NCBI GenBank assembly: GCA_950295325.1
Contig: OX485808.1
Coordinates: 24,634,527-24,698,526, forward strand
Reading direction: 5' to 3'
DNA: 64,000 bases
Source of the DNA: Polytrichum commune
Lineage: Eukaryota; Streptophyta; Polytrichopsida; Polytrichales; Polytrichaceae
The notes beneath the pieces are model-generated. The model was not told the origin of the DNA and searched no databases. It saw nothing but the letters and a program-made list of their open reading frames with translations. The translations under genes were made by a program, and so were the position numbers. Positions 4,779 through 41,112 of this stretch are shown here, in pieces; the stretch's first letter is position 1; the number at the start of each line of letters is the position of its first letter.

Positions 4779-6497
4779 TTAGCAGATTCTAGGTTTCCGA
4801 TGTCTTCTATATGTGAGCACCATTAGGAAGTCCTTCGGAGTGGGAGGCCCTGCAGGGGCGCTCCCGTTTGCGGAAGGAGCCGACGTCTCCCCTTGTCCTT
4901 GTCCTTGTGCTTGGATTTGTGTTTGTACTTGTGTTTGCGGCTGTGATTGCGATTGGTCTGGGACGGATGCACTAAACCAGATGTCGCGAATGCTTTCTAA
5001 TGGGAGACTGGACACCACGGGCTGGCCTCTGCAGGTGATCTCCACCTCCATTTCACTTTTCACCTTCTGACAAAATTTCTGCGCCAGGTACTTCTTCACT
5101 TGGTACACGGGCAGCTTCCCGTCTTTGATTCGGACGAAAGGAGAGGTCAGCGGTGGAAGTGCGTCCTCGTTGGTCTGAACATCCCCTGCTTCCAGATGGA
5201 ACCATATGCCGTTTGCAGGGGTTCTGGAAGGAGGGTTCAAAACCACGGGCCCGGCGACCGCTCGGCCAGGATTTCGTATTATGGATGGCCGATCTTGAAT
5301 GCCATTTGCGCTGTGGCGTATCCGCACTTGCAAGGCTTGGCCGTTGGAAGTTCCTGGAGTTTCGTCCTTGGGAGTTGCAGCAACTTTCGCTTCCCCTGCC
5401 TCCTTCTGTCCGGGCACAATGTCGCTCGCAGATCGCACCAGCGTATGCCGGACTGCCAGGGAAGGGGAAGCGGGCTCCGATTCTGCACCGGTTCCCTCCC
5501 TCGCCGCATCGGCATTGGCAGCTTGCGCCAGGGCATCCAGGGGGGATAAAAATTGCTCTACATTTTTGCCAGCCCTAGCCGAGGAAGAATAAACATTCAT
5601 TTTCCTGGATCCTCGATTGCTCTTCGGATTCTCCCTCTGTCCTGCCGATGAGCTGGACGGCTTTCCTCCGTTGCTTGCATTGGATTTGCTGCTTTGCACG
5701 AGTCGCTGGCCCACCTTCGACACGGTCCAAGGTCTCGCCTGGTACGTCCTGTACTCGCGATCGCCGCCGCTCGGGCTTGCCGCTGGATCCTCCTTCCTAC
5801 CTCTAGGTTCCGATTGGGGATACACCTTCGCATCCGCTGTCCATTCTGCCACAGACTTTCTGGATCCCTTGACCTGGGCCTCTGCTGCTCCATTTTGGAA
5901 ACCGTTCCGTGAATCTGCCTTTCGGACGACGGCTGCCACCTGCTCATCCTCATCCTCCTCTTCCTCTTCCTCCTCTTCCGTTGTTCTCGATTCCTCTTCG
6001 TCCTCCTCAACCTCCTCCTCGTCGATGCTACTGGGCTCACTGCTCACATGACCTCCCGCCGGTGCCCTAGGTTTGCGATTGGCCAACCCTGGGTACACGG
6101 GAGGCGATCCCTTCACCCCGAGCGAGTAGAGAGACTTCTCCTTGCGCCTGGTGGGCACGGAAGAGCCCGGACTCTCAATTGCCACCCCTAGCTTCCTCTT
6201 CTTCACATTGCTGGGGAATAGCTTCTCCTTCAAATCATTCAACTGGTGGTCTACCCTCAATTTCTCCAAGGGGACAGTGCCTAGAGCAACCTGGCACATA
6301 GGGCAGCAGTCGGCTGAGTCCTCATTGCTGAGCTCCGCAGTAATGCAATCCTTGCAAAATGTGTGCAGGCACTCGGATATGGTGGTTGCTTCCCGAACCA
6401 AATAGCTGCAGAGAGGGCACGTGAGACATGCCAACAAGGGTGCTTTCGGCACTCTCACCTCTGCGTAAGCCACGCTCTTCCTCCCGCTGTAGGGCAT
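4779..6497 (-). CDS. DRIP: DRIP-like RING/RAWUL E3 ubiquitin ligase
   Basis: Encodes about 572 residues from the ATG at 6495-6497. A C3HC4 RING finger is at residues 27-68 (C27, C30, C43, H45, C48, C51, C65, C68), with TTISECLHTFC at its centre as in Polycomb-type RINGs. Near 154-186 is an almost pure Glu/Asp tract. A C-terminal RAWUL ubiquitin-like domain spans about 431-565, beginning near GIWFHLEA, with VEITCRGQPV inside and FLMVLTYRR at the end. This order matches Arabidopsis DRIP1/DRIP2, nuclear ligases that ubiquitinate DREB2A in drought responses; that function here is inferred. The coding part is one exon. An in-frame ATG at 6645-6647 would add 50 residues, but the extension is low-complexity (a TATATA run codes Tyr-Ile repeats) and unlike the family, so I chose the later start. 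The 5' untranslated region may hold an intron ending near CCAACCAG, about 14 bases before the ATG. The family assignment is strong; the exact target is unknown. Confidence 0.93.
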   Translation of the reverse strand: MPYSGRKSVAYAEVRVPKAPLLACLTCPLCSYLVREATTISECLHTFCKDCITAELSNEDSADCCPMCQVALGTVPLEKLRVDHQLNDLKEKLFPSNVKKRKLGVAIESPGSSVPTRRKEKSLYSLGVKGSPPVYPGLANRKPRAPAGGHVSSEPSSIDEEEVEEDEEESRTTEEEEEEEEDEDEQVAAVVRKADSRNGFQNGAAEAQVKGSRKSVAEWTADAKVYPQSEPRGRKEDPAASPSGGDREYRTYQARPWTVSKVGQRLVQSSKSNASNGGKPSSSSAGQRENPKSNRGSRKMNVYSSSARAGKNVEQFLSPLDALAQAANADAAREGTGAESEPASPSLAVRHTLVRSASDIVPGQKEAGEAKVAATPKDETPGTSNGQALQVRIRHSANGIQDRPSIIRNPGRAVAGPVVLNPPSRTPANGIWFHLEAGDVQTNEDALPPLTSPFVRIKDGKLPVYQVKKYLAQKFCQKVKSEMEVEITCRGQPVVSSLPLESIRDIWFSASVPDQSQSQPQTQVQTQIQAQGQGQGETSAPSANGSAPAGPPTPKDFLMVLTYRRHRKPRIC

Positions 6498-7368
6498 TGT
6501 GCCTTCCAACTGGTTGGAGATTCCAATCCAATAAATATATATATATGTATGTTTACATGCAATATAATAGACGGCCACCGTTCCTTCCCCACGCTCGGGA
6601 TCTTTATGATTTAGGCTGCATGCACACGAAATCGCATCCGAGGACACGCATTAGTGATGATTGTAGCCATGACATGACATGGCTGCTAGCTTGGAAACAG
6701 CGGACGTGCGAGTTGGAGAATCTAACTCCACGCGAATGAAGCTGCTAGACTGCCTTTTAAGCAACATCTAGCGGAGCTTCAATCGATAGAACTCGAACAG
6801 CGCCCTTTTGCCCGTTCGATCACTCAGCCACTCCTCCGCCATGGGGGAGTTCATCCCTCACTAATCGACGTAGATAATCCACACGGACAAAAGCTAATAA
6901 TCATGCCTTCGAGTAGAACCTAATCTTACCGACCATGTACTCCATGACATAGCACATGCGATAAGCAATTTCACGTACAATCCTCTCTCTAGACTCTCCG
7001 GTTCAATTTGCACGTGCCACACGTGCAGGTCAGCAATCGCGACGCTAATCTAATGCTCGCCTCAGCTGACAAAATCAAAAGCGACGCAAAACCTTTCAAG
7101 ATGAAGTTCACCTCAGGCAATTCGACGTGCGATTTCAACCTAGGGCACGATTGCCCGGCACCCCGTCGCACGTAATCTCGACGTCAGATCATCATCTTGA
7201 GCTCGCCTCAGCTTCGCACTACCCAATCGCAATGCCCGAGATCCTCACTCCCGCGCGAAACTTGAATCGCCACACCTGGATCATTAACGGGCTGGATTGC
7301 AGCCACAGTATGCACCCCATGCCACGTCCATGCCTACGTGGGCTCCCCCACCCTCCATAGCCTCCCTT
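6498..7368 (-). promoter_or_regulatory. Upstream region of the DRIP-like gene
   Basis: This is the 5' flank of the minus-strand gene. It is richer in GC and CpG than the rest of the window, as expected for an unmethylated promoter zone. It includes a TATATATAT run at about 6533-6548, which could lie in the 5' untranslated region or at an intron end, and a pair of G-boxes listed separately. No transcription start could be fixed from sequence. Confidence 0.4.
7011..7025. promoter_or_regulatory. Twin G-boxes (CACGTG) 9 bp apart
   Basis: CACGTG is present at 7011-7016 and 7020-7025, in the arrangement CACGTG-CCA-CACGTG, about 510 bp upstream of the DRIP-like start codon. Closely paired ACGT cores are typical of ABA- and light-responsive plant promoters bound by bZIP/bHLH factors. 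That would fit a stress-related ligase, but regulation here is inferred. Confidence 0.5.
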
Positions 7369-23700: not shown

Positions 23701-24980
23701 ATGGGGGTAATGATGTTTGTAAATCATGTGTTTGGGATTAGGGCACATCACTAAATTCTGCCTCCCAAGTACATGTGAGCATATATAGATATATATATAT
23801 ATATATATAGATATATATATCCTTACACAAGGGTCCACAAGTTTCCTTCATTGAGCTACTACAAATATGAAGGCCACCACTCACTTAGTGCATAATACAA
23901 TGCAATAAAAAACCATTCTTGGGGTTGTTGGTCCTTTAGGGGCTAATGTATACAACCCTGTTGTGGGCACTCTTAACTCCACAAATGTTTTTTGGCCTTT
24001 GGATCAACTTGCTAATTAGTTAGCAATTTTGAAACATGAAGCCTCAACATGTTAGGTTTTAGATGTAGAGTTTCACAAGATGTAGAAGTTGTAAAAGGTC
24101 AAAATGAACAATTTGTTCTCCTTGAGTGATCACAGTGGCTCTCCCAATTGTGTCCATTATTGAACCTAGAGTGGTGTCTATATTTTGAGCACATGACCCA
24201 ACCTCATTATACCATGTGTCTTTTTGACGTCTGTTCTTTACTACAAGCCTTGCCACATACCACTCAATAAAAGATGCCCAATTTAGAAGAGTGATCACAT
24301 AAGGCCCACATATCTTTATAGGGTGGATTTACATTAGGGTTGGGTCCAAGAAACGTGGGGTCCAAAACACCCCTTAATGAACCTTGCTTTCGTACTCAAA
24401 GGTTGGACTCAAACTTGAAACTTGGTCTCCCAAATTAGGAGTCTCTTCTTGGGTAGGGACTGTTGAGATCCGGCGGGAAAGTGATGCCATATTCAACAAT
24501 CATTGCTTCTTCTTTTATAAAAATGTCAAGAATGCCAATATGGCGACAATGATTGGAGTGGTGAGGCCAACTATGAATTTACATGTTTTCATCCAAATAT
24601 GGACATATTCTTCCAAAAATTAACAAGTTCATCCGAATTACATTTCCAAGGATTGTATCCATGGAAAAATTGTATATTTGTATTCTATTTTTAGTATATA
24701 CAATGTCGCCTTGTTTTTCCTTTAAAAAGAATGATTGTTAACAACTTGCTTCATTTTTTCATGCGTTTGACCTGGACCCTAGTATGAACTCTCAATTGGG
24801 GTCCAAAATTTAACCCTCAACCAATAGGAATGCTCAATTTTGGAGTTCCTTTGGTCCAAGACACTAATAACACGATATTCAATATTTTGAGAGAGTGGGA
24901 TCCTCTCAAAATAATATTGGCCATTTGGACACCTAAAAGTCATGTTAGGTTCATAAATATTAGATTATACCTCAGACGTG
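20710..24980. other. Intergenic region downstream of the CBM20 gene
   Basis: No supportable coding sequence. The piece at 24080-24310 belongs to the dispersed family with CATGTGTCTTTTTG and CCCAATTGTGTCCATTATTG. A TA-rich microsatellite is at 23781-23820. The remainder looks unique but featureless by eye. Confidence 0.5.
23781..23820. repeat. (TA)n microsatellite
   Basis: ATATATAGATATATAT-type run of about 40 bases with two GA interruptions. Confidence 0.9.
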
Positions 24981-25345
24981 TAGTTTCCATTAAAATGAGA
25001 GTATGTTAAGCTGGGAAATCAACTCATTTAGGTTGAGTCGACCTAAACGAGGACAATATTTTGTCAATTTAGGTTGAGTCGACCTAAATGAGGACAATAT
25101 TTTGTCAATTTAGGTTGAGTCGACCTAAATGAGGACATTATATTGTCAATTTAGGTTGAGTCGACCTAAATGAGGACAATATTTTGTTAATTTAGGTTGA
25201 GTCGACCTAAATGAGGACAATTATGTTAGTCAATTTAGGTTGAGTCGACCTAAATGAGGACAATATGTTGTCAATTTAGGTTGAGTCGACCTAAATGAGT
25301 CGATTTCCCAGCTTAAATACTCTCATTTTAATGGAAACTACGGCA
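24981..25345. mobile_element. Foldback element with seven 41-bp internal repeats
   Basis: The ends are inverted repeats of about 60 bases. The left end starts TAGTTTCCATTAAAATGAGA and includes AGCTGGGAAATC; the right end is the reverse complement with one indel and one mismatch in the part compared. Between them a unit containing TTTAGGTTGAGTCGACCTAA starts at 25027, 25068, 25109, 25150, 25191, 25234 and 25275, i.e. a 41-bp period with one 43. Each unit is itself a near-palindrome (TTTAGGT and ACCTAAA arms). There is no coding capacity. Confidence 0.9.
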
Positions 25346-36038: not shown

Positions 36039-37799
36039 TTAATTATGTCCATAATAAGAACATGCAGCTTCTTCCCAGCCATCCTCTAGGGTTTCGTATG
36101 TTGGGATGTCCTCCATCACAGCCTCTGGTGCTTCGACTCCAGTTTCTTGGGCACATTGAATCATTTCCTCTTCTTCTTGAGCCAACTGCTCATCTTGCTC
36201 GGCCTCGGTTGCCATTTTCATTCACTCCAACCTGGTGAAAGCCGTGTTGGATGGTAGTGGCGGTGACTTCAATCCGGCTTTGAGAGATCCATTGAAAGGC
36301 GTGCCTGACATTGATCTTTTTTAACGCATCGTCCAACGCTGCCAAGTTTTCATGGGAGAGGAGAAACTCATGAAATCACTATATTCGTTAATCGGAGACT
36401 TTGGAGAATCTCAAAATAAATGCAAATGGTTTAAAATTTGGTGCAATTTCTTATTGTGATGACATGTATTTGTGCCAAATTGGTTAGTGTTGTCCATGCG
36501 AATCAATATAATAAGTTACATTGAATATATATGTGTGTTTTCCATGTTCTTTATTTGAAAACCATGTCGGAAGCGTCTTTTGATATTTGATCTTGAAGTT
36601 TTGGAGGATACCAGAGTCCAAGGGGTTGGGTTGTTGCAGTCGTGTTTGGTGGCAGGAAAACAAGCTTGACATTGGAGAGCTCCATCTCTGGATGGCAAGG
36701 GGCATTGTCGAGAAGAACGAGGGGTTTTCGGTTCTCAATCTGCATCTTGTTGTTGAACTGCTGTAGGTACTCTAGAAATATCGCTTCAGTCATCCAAGAC
36801 TTGGCGTTTGCCTTCCACATGACTTGCCGAGGAAGTTGTTTGTTGAAAGCTCGTGGCATCTGAGATTTGCCAATCACCAGAGGCTTGAACTTTTCAATCA
36901 CTGCTGAAGAGAGAAATGTGACGGTAAGGCGTTCCTTGGCAAGCTTGCCTCCTTTGCATCTTTCTCCATGGGACACTAAGTTGCGGTTGGGCACACCTTT
37001 CCAAAAAATCCCACTCTCGTCCACGTTCCAGATGTCCTTCTTGTCGTAGCCCTAAATGATGCTAGGTAAGTTTTGCTTCTCGTTGGCGACAATTTGCTGG
37101 TCCATGCCTGCGTTTTCACCTGACAACATGCGGAATCGGATGTTGTGGCACTCGCAAAATGCTTCCAACCAGCCATTGGATGCCTTAAAATCATTCATCT
37201 CAATGCCTTCAACCCCTTCAAGGCTTTCTCCTGCAAGATACGGCCAGAGACATGATTGTTTCGAGAGCGAGCACCAACAAACCACTCGTAGACTTGCTCA
37301 TCGACGAGCTTACCATCACCAATGACCCAGGTTGATCGTTTTTGGAGCTTGGTTTTGAGAGATCGATGCGATAATCTTATCATTGTTCTTGTTCCAGTTG
37401 ACAACGGTGCCAGGAGAGACACCATACTTGATCCCGCAAGCTCTCATAGCCATGCCATTGGACAAGTCTTGCAGTGCGTCAACCTTTTGTCCCAAGGTCT
37501 TCTCAACGTATTTCCTTTTTCCAATCATTGTTCAATCAAAGAGCAGCACGCACGCACGCGCATGCACGCACACACACACGTGCAGTGTGAATCTCAAGTC
37601 TGCATGCCGTGGCAGAGTACGGAAAGTGCACATGAAACTTTTGAGAGCAGTTTCAAAAAAAAATGTTCAATGTTCAAGGTCAGGGGTGTCTATTCAGAGG
37701 AGGTGCATTTGTATGCCAAAATTGAATGTACATCCACAAACTGTTCAAACTAAGGAGGTGTTCATTCATAGGAGATGTTCAATCTAACAGGTTTCACTG
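36039..37799 (-). pseudogene. Broken pogo/Tigger-like (Tc1/mariner) transposase and element
   Basis: Reading the minus strand from 37528, the parts come in the family order. First is an N-terminal helix-turn-helix (GIKYGVSPGTVVNWNKNN, about 37440-37380). Then comes a second DNA-binding region (YEWFVGARSRNN, then GWLEAFCECHNIRFRMLSG), then DDE catalytic motifs NVDESGIFWK, LLDNAPCHP and LDSGILQNFK, then KINVRHAFQWIS and an acidic tail (36221-36039). The second and third Asp are 29 residues apart. Damage includes frame changes near 37340 and 37200, a TAG at 37052-37054, a one-base change in a C-run (36622-36625) just before the third Asp, and decay after it. The right end reads, on the minus strand, TA|CAGTGAAACCTGTTAGATT, a typical Tigger-type terminus at a TA target (37800-37801). 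The left end is uncertain, perhaps near 35965. Arabidopsis Lemi1 is a known plant relative. Confidence 0.85.
37548..37580. repeat. CA/CG alternating purine-pyrimidine tract
   Basis: CACGCACGCACGCGCATGC and then CACACACACGTG, inside the 5' part of the transposon relic. Sequences like this can adopt Z-DNA. Confidence 0.7.
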
Positions 37800-38230
37800 T
37801 ATATAGATCTCCAACATCTGCAAACAAGCCAATGTATCACAAAGTACATCGATATAGATGAACCAAGAAAAAAAAAAAGAGAAAACATTCTCTACACTCA
37901 ACTTAAGAAGTTTGCATTTTGCATAACATCATTAATGGCCACTTCACACACGAGACTGAGAGCCCGTGTTCATTACACTTCAAGCACTCTCATTGGTGGG
38001 AGAGGCGGAGCCGGTCCAAGTTCACTTCACACTATGCTTGAGGGACCAATGGAGTATGTGAATGCAAGATGGATGGATGTAAAGTCTACATGGATTCCTA
38101 CATGGCATCGAATAGATCATGTTTCACGGTCACTTGGACTCTTTTCATTAATAACCTATAAGGTAACTAGAAATATTGATGGATGATTGAATATTCTAAT
38201 CACATGTGCCAGTGTGTAAGCAGAGGATGA

Positions 38231-38591
38231 TGGGAGCTGGACAACTCCCAATAGAAGATGGATGGATTGGAGTTAGACAACTCTAGATTGACAACATGTG
38301 CACTAGAGTTAGACAGCTCCGCATTTAGTGCATTGGAATTAGACTATTCCATATTGAGGACATGTGCACATGAGTTAGAGAGCTCTCGATGAGGTGCATT
38401 GGAGTTAGATCACTCCAGATTTGGAAAGATGAATGGTGCATTGGAGTTAGACAACTCTCAATGAATAGATAGATCTAGTTGGAATTAGACAGTTCCAACT
38501 AGAAGAATGGTTGGATGAACCAAGTTGGAATTAGACAATTCCAACTAGAAGGATGGATGGATGAATCCAGTTGGAATTAGACAGTTCCAAC
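38231..38591. repeat. Array of about ten short hairpins with a shared loop
   Basis: Near-palindromes of consensus GGARTTAGACARYTCC repeat every 30-46 bases. Clear ones are 38231-38250 (arms TGGGAG/CTCCCA), 38334-38351 (TGGAAT/ATTCCA), 38400-38417 (TGGAGT/ACTCCA), 38474-38503 (TCTAGTTGGAA/TTCCAACTAGA), 38523-38546 (AGTTGGAATT/AATTCCAACT) and 38570-38591 (GTTGGAA/TTCCAAC). Weaker ones begin near 38269, 38305, 38372 and 38443. Spacers are partly shared (GATGGATGGATGAA, ACATGTGCAC). No protein is coded. Confidence 0.9.
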
Positions 38592-41112
38592 ATGAAGAAT
38601 GAGATTGACTTAAAAGATGGAAGAAGGTTCTAGAGGAACCAAAGATAGAAGATTCATAGTAGGACTAAGAAATAGAGCTATGAATAAAATACTTATACTA
38701 TATGTGAAAATAGAAAGTAAAAGTAGTGTCTTTGACATAAGAAGAAGCTCGGGGGAGGAGAGAGGATCTTTTTGTCTCTCTCCTATGGTCGGGTGGTTGA
38801 GCTTAGACCAAGACCTACTTGGTCTACTTTTGTAATTTGACGTTACAAGGAAAATAAATTGAGTTCTTCAACTCGTCATTTGGATTGATAATTGCGATTG
38901 TGAAAGTAGCTGACAAACTTGTGAGAGGTTTGTTACACCACCTCTTGGATGTAGGGCTAACACAACACTAGGAGACCATGGCCCTCAGAAAGCTCACAAT
39001 CGTTGGTTTATTCTATTTTATCATGTGTGAGGACCCACATGAAGAGAAATTCTTTGAAGTAGCATTTGGTGAAAAGCCCGGTAACATATGACTTCACACT
39101 ACACTTGAGAATCCACGACCACACTACATGATTTTGGAGGTGTGTTGGGACGGCCTTTGGACACTTTCTTTGGGCTCTCACAATTTTGTGGTCACAACAT
39201 TGGCTCATGTATTCACTCCCTTTTCTAATTCTAGTATAATCACTCCAACATTGTAGTGCTACAATGCTTGATCACTTGTCATCATTGGATCTTCCCTTGA
39301 ACTATGGAGATACTCTACGTGAGCACTTCATTTTGAGATTCAACATGACACCTCAACATATCCAAAAAATTATCATAATGATTCCCAAATATTTAAGGGA
39401 AAATTTATTGTCACAGAGCCAAGTAATAATATGTGTAAATTTCCTAAGGACTAATAACAAATTTAAACTTGATAACTAAAATAATGTACATTTGCAGCCA
39501 ATCATGTGGGAACTTGGGGCTTGCCCTTGGGGGAGGGAGGTGCTAGCCGGCTTGTCCACACCTGTTCAAGATGTTCACCTTCAAAAGAAGGCGGTAGTGG
39601 TTGGGAGCCCTCTAATTCTTCTAATGTGTGCTTCATAGATACATCTAAGTTTGAGGCATTTATAACAGAGAAAATAAATTTAAAAAGTCATATGTCTAGG
39701 AGGAGTGATAGCGGTTTTCTTGCGTAGAGAAACTAATTCTACAAAGAATGCTAAAAATCAATTAATTGTTTTTGAAATTTCATGAATATGGAAATTGGTA
39801 CAATGTTCTAAAGCGGTAAAGTTAGGGTAAGACAAAGTCAATCTATAGGCTAACCTATAACCGCTCATCTAAATCCTAATGCTTGGCTATGGCAGTTGTC
39901 AAAACTCTGTTGAGGGTAATCAATCACAAGTCGCTGCCACATAAATCTTAACTCCGTTAACCTAAACAATATAGATCTCATCCATGTCGGCAGTACATGA
40001 CCCTAGTGAGTAGTTAAAATGGACTTGGTCAACCATGGATGCTTCCACCTTAGACTTAGACCAACACAAAATGAAGTGGCATGCTGGTGGGAACATTGGA
40101 GTTGTTGTTTGTATATAGTGATTGAAGTACATAAACCAACCAACATGATAAATAGCTAAAAAACAACTACTAAACATTTATAGGTATTTAATTTAAGCCA
40201 AATATTAATAAGGGTATGTGTATAGTAACATATATTGAACGTGGGCCAAAGATTCGTGGTATCTATTTTAAGCGACCCATGCCCGACTGCTTAAGCATTT
40301 TAGCATATGTACGGTTTAGGAAGAAAAAGTTCCCCGTGTAGAGAAATAGAAATAAGAAGCAATTCATCTTTTTTTCATAATTTGTTTCCCGATAACTAGT
40401 TTATTATGAACTTTCTAAGTGGATATTCTCTTTGACTTACACTCGTGATATAGGCTAACCTCTTTCCGAACATTGATTGGTTACAAAACTAAGAAGGTTT
40501 GATTCCCATTATTGATAATTATGACACCTAAATATGCTCGCAATCTGAACCTAGTTGTCAACTTAGCCGTTGACACATGTCTAAGTTGGATCTCAACCAC
40601 GACATGTTATTAATGATTAGATATTGTGATTGTGTTGCACGGACATAGGTTAACCTAAGCTTCAAGAATGGGGTGGTGGTCAGGAAAGGGTCGCTTAACT
40701 TACAAAAAATGCATTCATAAGGAAGGCGAATTCTATTCTATAGCACGAAATAGTTGTTTACATACAACTTTGGTTCCGAAAATGAGATCAAAGACTAGAA
40801 TTACTCTTGTGGGGTCTAGTTGGAATGAGTTGGCCCGGAAGTTGGACGAGACTTGTTTTTACTTCTCAAAACCCCTTCATCCATGATGAGTCCACAATGG
40901 ATGAGTTTACATAGATGCCATGAACTCCAAGCCCTGGACCCGAATGGTCGAATCCTTCAATGCATAATATCCACATCACGTTTGCACATGTTTCCAAAAT
41001 TCTATTGGAAATACCAACATATCCATGGAATTTTAATAATTCATGATATTGTCATTAGTCCCGCAAGATATCATATTTCGACTCCAATTCTTTCCATAAC
41101 ATTATTCACATT
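38592..41112. other. Intergenic AT-rich region
   Basis: No supportable gene. The 38640-38880 part ends in T-rich DNA and AAAATAAATTG and could be the rest of a solo LTR that includes the hairpin array, but no terminal duplication was found. Confidence 0.45.

What the first reader, a model, noticed from the sequence alone, without database searches (positions are those of the whole stretch)
38231..38591. Array of about ten hairpins whose arms covary around a constant loop
Ten short inverted repeats follow one another with 30-46 base spacing. The loop core TTAGAC is nearly constant, while the arms differ between units in a complementary way: TGGGAG/CTCCCA, TGGAAT/ATTCCA, TGGAGT/ACTCCA, AGTTGGAATT/AATTCCAACT. 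Six are perfect or nearly so. Paired substitution in tandem copies suggests the paired form was kept, either as RNA structure or as symmetric protein sites, or that copies were homogenised as palindromes. It matches no element class I know; a place within an LTR U3 is one possibility.
Basis: seen in the sequence. Interest (0 to 1): 0.75.

Follow-up and report, generated by a model that had tools for sequence, protein, structure and literature searches.

The report
Hairpin array in a retrotransposon LTR

Summary
The array is real: ten near-palindromic units (TTGGARTT-AGAC-ARYTCCAA type) at 38231-38591, spaced 30-46 bases. It lies in the U3 side of a solo LTR (38157-38937, sense strand +) inserted in an older repeat. 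One genome search scored 40 of 652 candidates, all matching (the window among them). One full-length relative has PBS, PPT, matching 5-bp flanks and gag/protease/RT/RNase H/integrase ORFs with a sub-threshold chromodomain: Ty3/gypsy, probably a chromovirus. The covariation claim is only partly right: own arms fit better than arms dealt at random (62 of 80 Watson-Crick pairs against 54.6, p=0.013), but most arm positions hardly vary, and co-changes on tree branches do not clearly exceed slid controls. Across 91 LTR copies, arms and loop are depleted of changes on internal branches; transversions in the inner six pairs are 2 internal: 67 terminal, against 199:444 in non-stem columns (p=2.5e-8). 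Outer pairs show no such depletion. Best reading: a repeated dyad-symmetric cis-regulatory site upstream of the LTR's TATA-like box, kept by selection. An RNA-hairpin role in the genomic RNA is not excluded.

The parts
38157..38937 (+). solo LTR (781 bp) of a Ty3/gypsy family, probably chromovirus; ends TATAAGG (TGTAAGG in most relatives read) and TTGTTACA
   Evidence: 20 fetched relatives: alignments begin at 38143-38159 in all 20; they reach 38937-38939 in 3 of 20 and stop at 38826 in the others, whose TTACA end was read by eye; a related repeat in L016 is continuous across this place; 5-bp flanks TAACC/CCACC agree at 3 of 5
38231..38591 (+). array of ten near-palindromic units in U3
38231..38250 (+). 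unit 1 (6-bp perfect arms, core GGAC)
38268..38285 (+). unit 2
38304..38321 (+). unit 3 (weak arms)
38334..38351 (+). unit 4 (6-bp perfect arms)
38370..38387 (+). unit 5 (core AGAG, short stem)
38400..38417 (+). unit 6 (6-bp perfect arms, core AGAT)
38441..38460 (+). unit 7 (stem with one bulged base)
38474..38503 (+). unit 8 (11-bp perfect arms; first of three 46-bp repeats)
38523..38546 (+). unit 9
38570..38591 (+). unit 10
38698..38703 (+). TATA-like CTATAT, 107 bp downstream of the array (putative promoter; motif reading, not tested)
38853..38858 (+). AATAAA, putative polyadenylation signal of the LTR (another AATAAA lies at 38683; neither tested)

Best explanation
The array is a repeated cis-regulatory module in the U3 of a Ty3/gypsy (probably chromovirus) LTR. 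Each unit is a roughly 16-20-bp dyad-symmetric site (half-site TTGGARTT, AGAC centre), most likely bound by a host DNA-binding factor upstream of the LTR promoter; tandem copies raise or tune transcription of the element. Units multiplied by tandem duplication (the last three as 46-bp repeats) and were kept by selection on the elements that went on copying themselves. Shown: LTR identity, U3-side position by PBS and PPT, sequence constraint on inner arms and loop. Inferred: protein binding and effect on transcription.
For: Solo LTR with relatives; exact 5-bp target duplications in 12 of 17 relatives of the longer subfamily, one of the other five being the 3' LTR of a full-length element. Full-length relative with PBS TGGTATCAGAGC, PPT GGAAGGGGGAGAT and CCTTC on both outer sides, ORFs matching gag, RVP_2, RVT_1, RNase H and H2C2 integrase above cut-off, rve and Chromo below it. 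Constraint in 91 copies (tree of 90): internal/terminal changes over all stem columns 95/364 and in the loop 25/119, against 473/1168 in non-stem columns (p=4.5e-4 and 2.6e-3); inner six pairs 51/238. Core-stem transversions 2/67 against 199/444 (p=2.5e-8). Both arms alike at depths 1-6 (left 21/95, right 30/141). Array upstream of a TATA-like motif. Parallel: Tnt1 U3 BII boxes, described in PMC3316501 as known to bind defence-induced DNA-binding factors (passage), and varying in number (PMC2923131, passages).
Against: No factor, binding or expression data. The asymmetric AGAC centre changes as rarely on internal branches as the arms, which a plain symmetric dimer site does not require. Spacings of 30-46 bp show no helical phasing. 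Pair-keeping changes are relatively favoured on internal branches, which a DNA site does not by itself predict. I did not check whether the unit occurs outside this LTR family.
Confidence: 0.5

Rival explanations
1. RNA-level function: U3 is transcribed at the 3' end of the genomic RNA, where about ten short stems with an AGAC loop would form; they could serve packaging, export, stability or reverse transcription.
For: From Watson-Crick parents, pair-keeping changes (G.U or double) were 38 of 53 on internal and 104 of 272 on terminal branches (p=8e-6; whole-LTR tree 32 of 56 and 98 of 257, p=0.011). G.U against A.C, both transitions, of which only G.U pairs in the sense RNA: 33/100 against 11/78 internal/terminal (p=0.026). 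States shared by 10 or more distinct arrays: 11 G.U, 3 A.C, 7 other mismatches; rare states 21, 32 and 82. Sense RNA folds 5.9 sd below shuffles.
Against: The G.U excess is unstable: p=0.236 on the whole-LTR tree, 0.08 for depths 1-6, and the matched test G>A left against C>T right gives p=0.50. In the window's units both G.U (9 against 11.6) and A.C (3 against 5.0) lie below the dealt-arm mean, neither clearly. Antisense folds as far below its shuffles. Double changes do not clearly exceed slid controls. Outer stem pairs (depth 7 and more) are not depleted of changes: 44/126, transversions 20/47. No Rfam family reached its gathering score.
Confidence: 0.28
2. No function of its own: a palindrome duplicated in tandem, kept similar by unit exchange and template-switch correction during reverse transcription.
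For: Units 8-10 are 46-bp repeats, and in the commonest variants of the young subfamily all three have T-A at depth 2 where other copies often have T.G. Unit number varies between copies. Paired differences in unit 10 may be whole-unit exchange.
Against: Inner-arm transversions are strongly depleted (odds ratio 0.067) on internal branches while terminal ones are common. Units 1-7 keep recognisable spacers across lineages, so wholesale homogenisation is limited.
Confidence: 0.2

Closest known systems
Ty3/gypsy chromovirus LTRs (Metaviridae)
   Same: TG..CA ends and 5-bp target duplication in relatives, tRNA-type PBS, PPT, PR-RT-RH-IN order, sub-threshold chromodomain match
   Different: a U3 array of about ten near-palindromes; I recall none described and the eight answered paper searches listed none by title or abstract
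Tnt1 (Ty1/copia) U3 BI/BII repeats
   Same: repeated short element in U3 whose number varies between elements; BII boxes stated to bind defence-induced factors (PMC2923131, PMC3316501, passages only)
   Different: copia, not gypsy; fewer repeats (recalled); no sequence comparison made
Retroviral 3' RNA hairpin elements such as the constitutive transport element
   Same: structured RNA near the 3' LTR (recalled)
   Different: no array of ten (recalled); no homology tested; function here not shown

Membership tests
LTR retrotransposon, solo LTR | single LTR with TG..CA ends and target site duplication, no internal region | tested here: met
   window copy: one LTR, flanks continuous in L016; its first dinucleotide reads TA and its 5-bp flanks agree at 3 of 5, so these two marks are decayed here; relatives have exact 5-bp duplications in 12 of 17
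Ty3/gypsy | domain order PR-RT-RH-IN | tested here: met
   three successive ORFs of L069: RVP_2 and RVT_1, then RNase H, then H2C2/SH3_Tf2-1 (rve below cut-off)
chromovirus | chromodomain at the integrase C-terminus | tested here: inconclusive
   PF00385 E=8.2e-4, 19.7 bits, cut-off 25.1, at 479-511 of 512 aa
LTR retrotransposon | tRNA PBS after the 5' LTR and PPT before the 3' LTR | tested here: met
   TTGGTATCAGAGC after the 5' LTR and GGAAGGGGGAGAT before the 3' LTR of one full-length relative; the match to tRNA-Met is recalled
U3 enhancer repeat (works like Tnt1 BII) | binds a host factor and activates transcription | not testable with these tools
   position and constraint only
conserved RNA hairpin | compensatory substitutions above control | tested here: inconclusive
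   own arms fit better than dealt arms, but double changes on branches do not clearly exceed slid partners

The most novel reading that the evidence does not exclude
A Ty3/gypsy element carries in each LTR an array of about ten selected RNA stem-loops with an AGAC loop, acting in its genomic RNA (for example as repeated Gag or export-factor sites) while the same DNA is its upstream promoter region: one array read twice, as DNA and as RNA.
Probability: 0.15. Interest if true: 0.75.

Novelty: new variant of a known kind. Interest (0 to 1): 0.4.

Why it matters
Repeats in U3 are known, but an array of about ten near-palindromes whose inner arms and loop are measurably constrained across 91 LTR copies is a good natural experiment. 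Dead copies (652 first-look candidates) give the neutral rate, shared changes give the selected rate, and G.U against A.C changes could separate RNA from DNA function once enough copies are read. If the RNA reading held, it would show a repeated hairpin signal in the RNA of such an element, about whose cis-signals little is known (recall).

Tried and rejected
Rejected: a stand-alone satellite or a new element class (boundaries coincide with an LTR). Rejected: the copia ORF beside L010 as part of the element (antisense to the LTR, and the stretch holding it is not shared by the other 19 fetched relatives). Rejected: a known RNA family (four hits, none near its gathering score). Rejected as evidence: low folding energy, because both strands show it. 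The loose unit finder also hits 143 places elsewhere in the window, so its unit counts per copy (5 to 14, commonest 11, 91 copies) are biased upwards. Dropped before the counts: hits shorter than 450 bases when copies were collected; one of 91 rows for the flank tree; units whose core was gapped in the alignment; changes from a Watson-Crick pair to a double non-pair in the tests. Not reached: more lineages, the chromovirus clade, the host's name (plant-like is my inference from the element type and assembly, not a test), and a check whether the unit occurs outside this LTR family (714 exact matches to a 20-base unit pattern genome-wide, 0 for the reversed control; 100 places listed, not inspected one by one). 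Papers: passages only of six (PMC3601003, PMC2923131, PMC3316501, PMC10794571, PMC4379980, PMC3485330); none read whole.

Full report
What is there. Seven of ten have the exact core TTAGAC, and six have perfect ungapped arms of 6 to 11 bp. Written outwards from the AGAC centre, the typical unit is TTGGARTT-AGAC-ARYTCCAA. Units 8-10 are 46-bp tandem repeats; units 1-7 have spacers of their own.

What it belongs to. A whole-genome search with 38200-38620 scored 40 of 652 candidates, and all 40 places matched, the window itself included. The other 39 are 89-93% identical, most over nearly the whole query. Comparison with 20 fetched relatives places the LTR ends at 38157 and 38937; by BLAST only 3 of 20 align to the right end, while the rest stop at 38826 and have a diverged stretch before the same TTACA end. 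A related repeat in L016 is continuous across this place, so the 781-bp stretch is an insertion. A longer subfamily (mostly 955 bp) has TGTAATG..TTACA ends with exact 5-bp target duplications in 12 of 17 copies; of the other five, L017 is a 3' LTR, two agree at 4 of 5 and two at 3 of 5. In the window copy the first dinucleotide is TA and the flanks agree at 3 of 5, so it is an old solo LTR.

Full-length relative. L017's LTR has a partner about 6.4 kb away on the same strand. The two align at 94.3% over 955 columns, the 5' one being about 46 bp shorter, and are 100% identical over their first 493 bases. Between them lie a PBS TGGTATCAGAGC and a PPT GGAAGGGGGAGAT, and the outer flanks are CCTTC on both sides. 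Separate ORFs match Retrotrans_gag, RVP_2, RVT_1, RT_RNaseH, Integrase_H2C2 and SH3_Tf2-1 above cut-off, and rve and Chromo below it. This is Ty3/gypsy, probably a chromovirus. The PPT and PBS fix the direction: the array's + strand is the sense strand. The array lies in the U3 side, 107 bp upstream of a TATA-like CTATAT; an AATAAA follows at 38853. These motif readings are not tested.

Do the arms covary? Between the window's ten units, own arms give more Watson-Crick pairs than arms dealt at random: 62 of 80 against 54.6, p=0.013. In 78 of 83 copies with eight or more units p<0.05, but the copies are related. Without two of the three 46-bp repeats the window's value is p=0.055. Paired differences exist at depth 3 (G-C in units 1, 2, 3, 5, 6, 7; A-T in 4, 8, 9, 10), depth 7 (T-A; G-C or G.T in unit 1), unit 1 depth 6 (G-C in 45 and A-T in 32 distinct arrays of 86), unit 10 depth 9 (A-T 36, G-C 32) and depth 11 (C-G 43, A-T 18, T.G 10). 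Against: depth 2 is T-A, T.G or C.A with no C-G among the common states. Depth 1 is T.C or T.T in unit 4 and T.C in unit 6. Unit 2 has A.A at depths 1 and 7 in about 33 arrays. Unit 5 has T.T at depth 6 in 53 of 57 copies. Double changes on tree branches were 6 of 137 internal, against 1 of 101, 1 of 117, 2 of 130, 3 of 144, 6 of 129 and 2 of 119 with slid partners; terminal 12 of 458 against 4 to 10 of 332-474.

Was it selected? 91 LTR copies (86 distinct arrays, window included) were aligned, and changes were placed by parsimony on a tree of 90 of them built from the LTR outside the array. Terminal branches are mostly mutations in dead copies; internal branches passed through elements that still copied themselves (inference). 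Internal/terminal changes: inner six pairs 51/238, loop 25/119, outer pairs 44/126, flanks of units 70/161, spacers 77/187, rest of the LTR 3' of the array 285/704, 5' of it 41/116. Core-stem transversions are 2/67 against 199/444 in non-stem columns, p=2.5e-8; all stem columns 22/114, p=3.6e-4; for the loop alone transversions are not depleted (9/34, p=0.23). So the inner arms, and by total changes the loop, were under purifying selection; the outer arms show little of it.

DNA or RNA? A change from a Watson-Crick pair to G.U keeps the pair in sense RNA, and one to A.C breaks it. Internal/terminal: G.U 33/100, A.C 11/78, other mismatch 4/90, double to Watson-Crick 5/4 (p=0.026 for G.U against A.C; p=8e-6 for kept against broken). 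On a tree from the whole LTR the same tests give p=0.236 and p=0.011. Eight stricter branch sets on the two trees give 0.022 to 0.63 for the first and 1.2e-6 to 0.30 for the second. The matched test in G-C pairs shows no difference (10/60 against 14/56, p=0.50), T-A pairs none (p=1.0), A-T pairs some (7/7 against 0/9, p=0.019). These p values are not corrected for the number of tests. The RNA reading is suggestive only. Base identity in the inner arms is kept more strictly than pairing requires, which is why a sequence-specific DNA site is my first choice.

Comparison. [quoted passage not shown] PMC3601003 (passages) links conservation in long R regions to stem-loops. In eight answered searches (listings, plus passages of six papers) I saw no paper on hairpin arrays in such a U3; the library holds open-licence PMC papers only, and listings were cut at 8 to 15 rows.

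On re-reading the calls I mended: the number of scored relatives, the LTR-to-LTR identity, the range of the stricter tests, the number of papers seen, the outer-pair result and several 'none' statements.

Verdict. An ordinary host (a solo LTR of a Ty3/gypsy element) for an unusually well-developed and constrained U3 repeat. New variant of a known kind; moderate interest.

Noticed in passing
window 24980-25341: A fold-back or MITE-like element: inverted ends (25 bp perfect, about 40 bp in all) around 6.6 copies of a 41-bp unit that itself holds two palindromes (ATTTAGGTTGAGTCGACCTAAAT and GACAATATTTTGTC). Five requests to search the genome for it did not complete.
   Followed up: partly
window 38201, 38295, 38361, 38367: Spacers of the array and the LTR start carry repeated CATGTG/CACATG motifs; the ACATGTGCAC stretches between units 2-3 and 4-5 pair with each other in the lowest-energy sense RNA fold.
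   Followed up: no
window 36551-37024 (-): ORF with a DDE_1 endonuclease match (E=1.4e-24), likely a DNA transposon remnant.
   Followed up: no
window 4779-6647 (-): 622-aa ORF with a RING-type zinc finger match.
   Followed up: no
L010 3738-4692 and relatives: The longer LTR subfamily has an extra 5' stretch of about 220 bp with imperfect repeats of the LTR start (TGTAATGTAAC / TGTAAAGTAAC / TGTAAGGTAA). Its copies are 94-99.9% identical to L010, so the family was recently active.
   Followed up: partly
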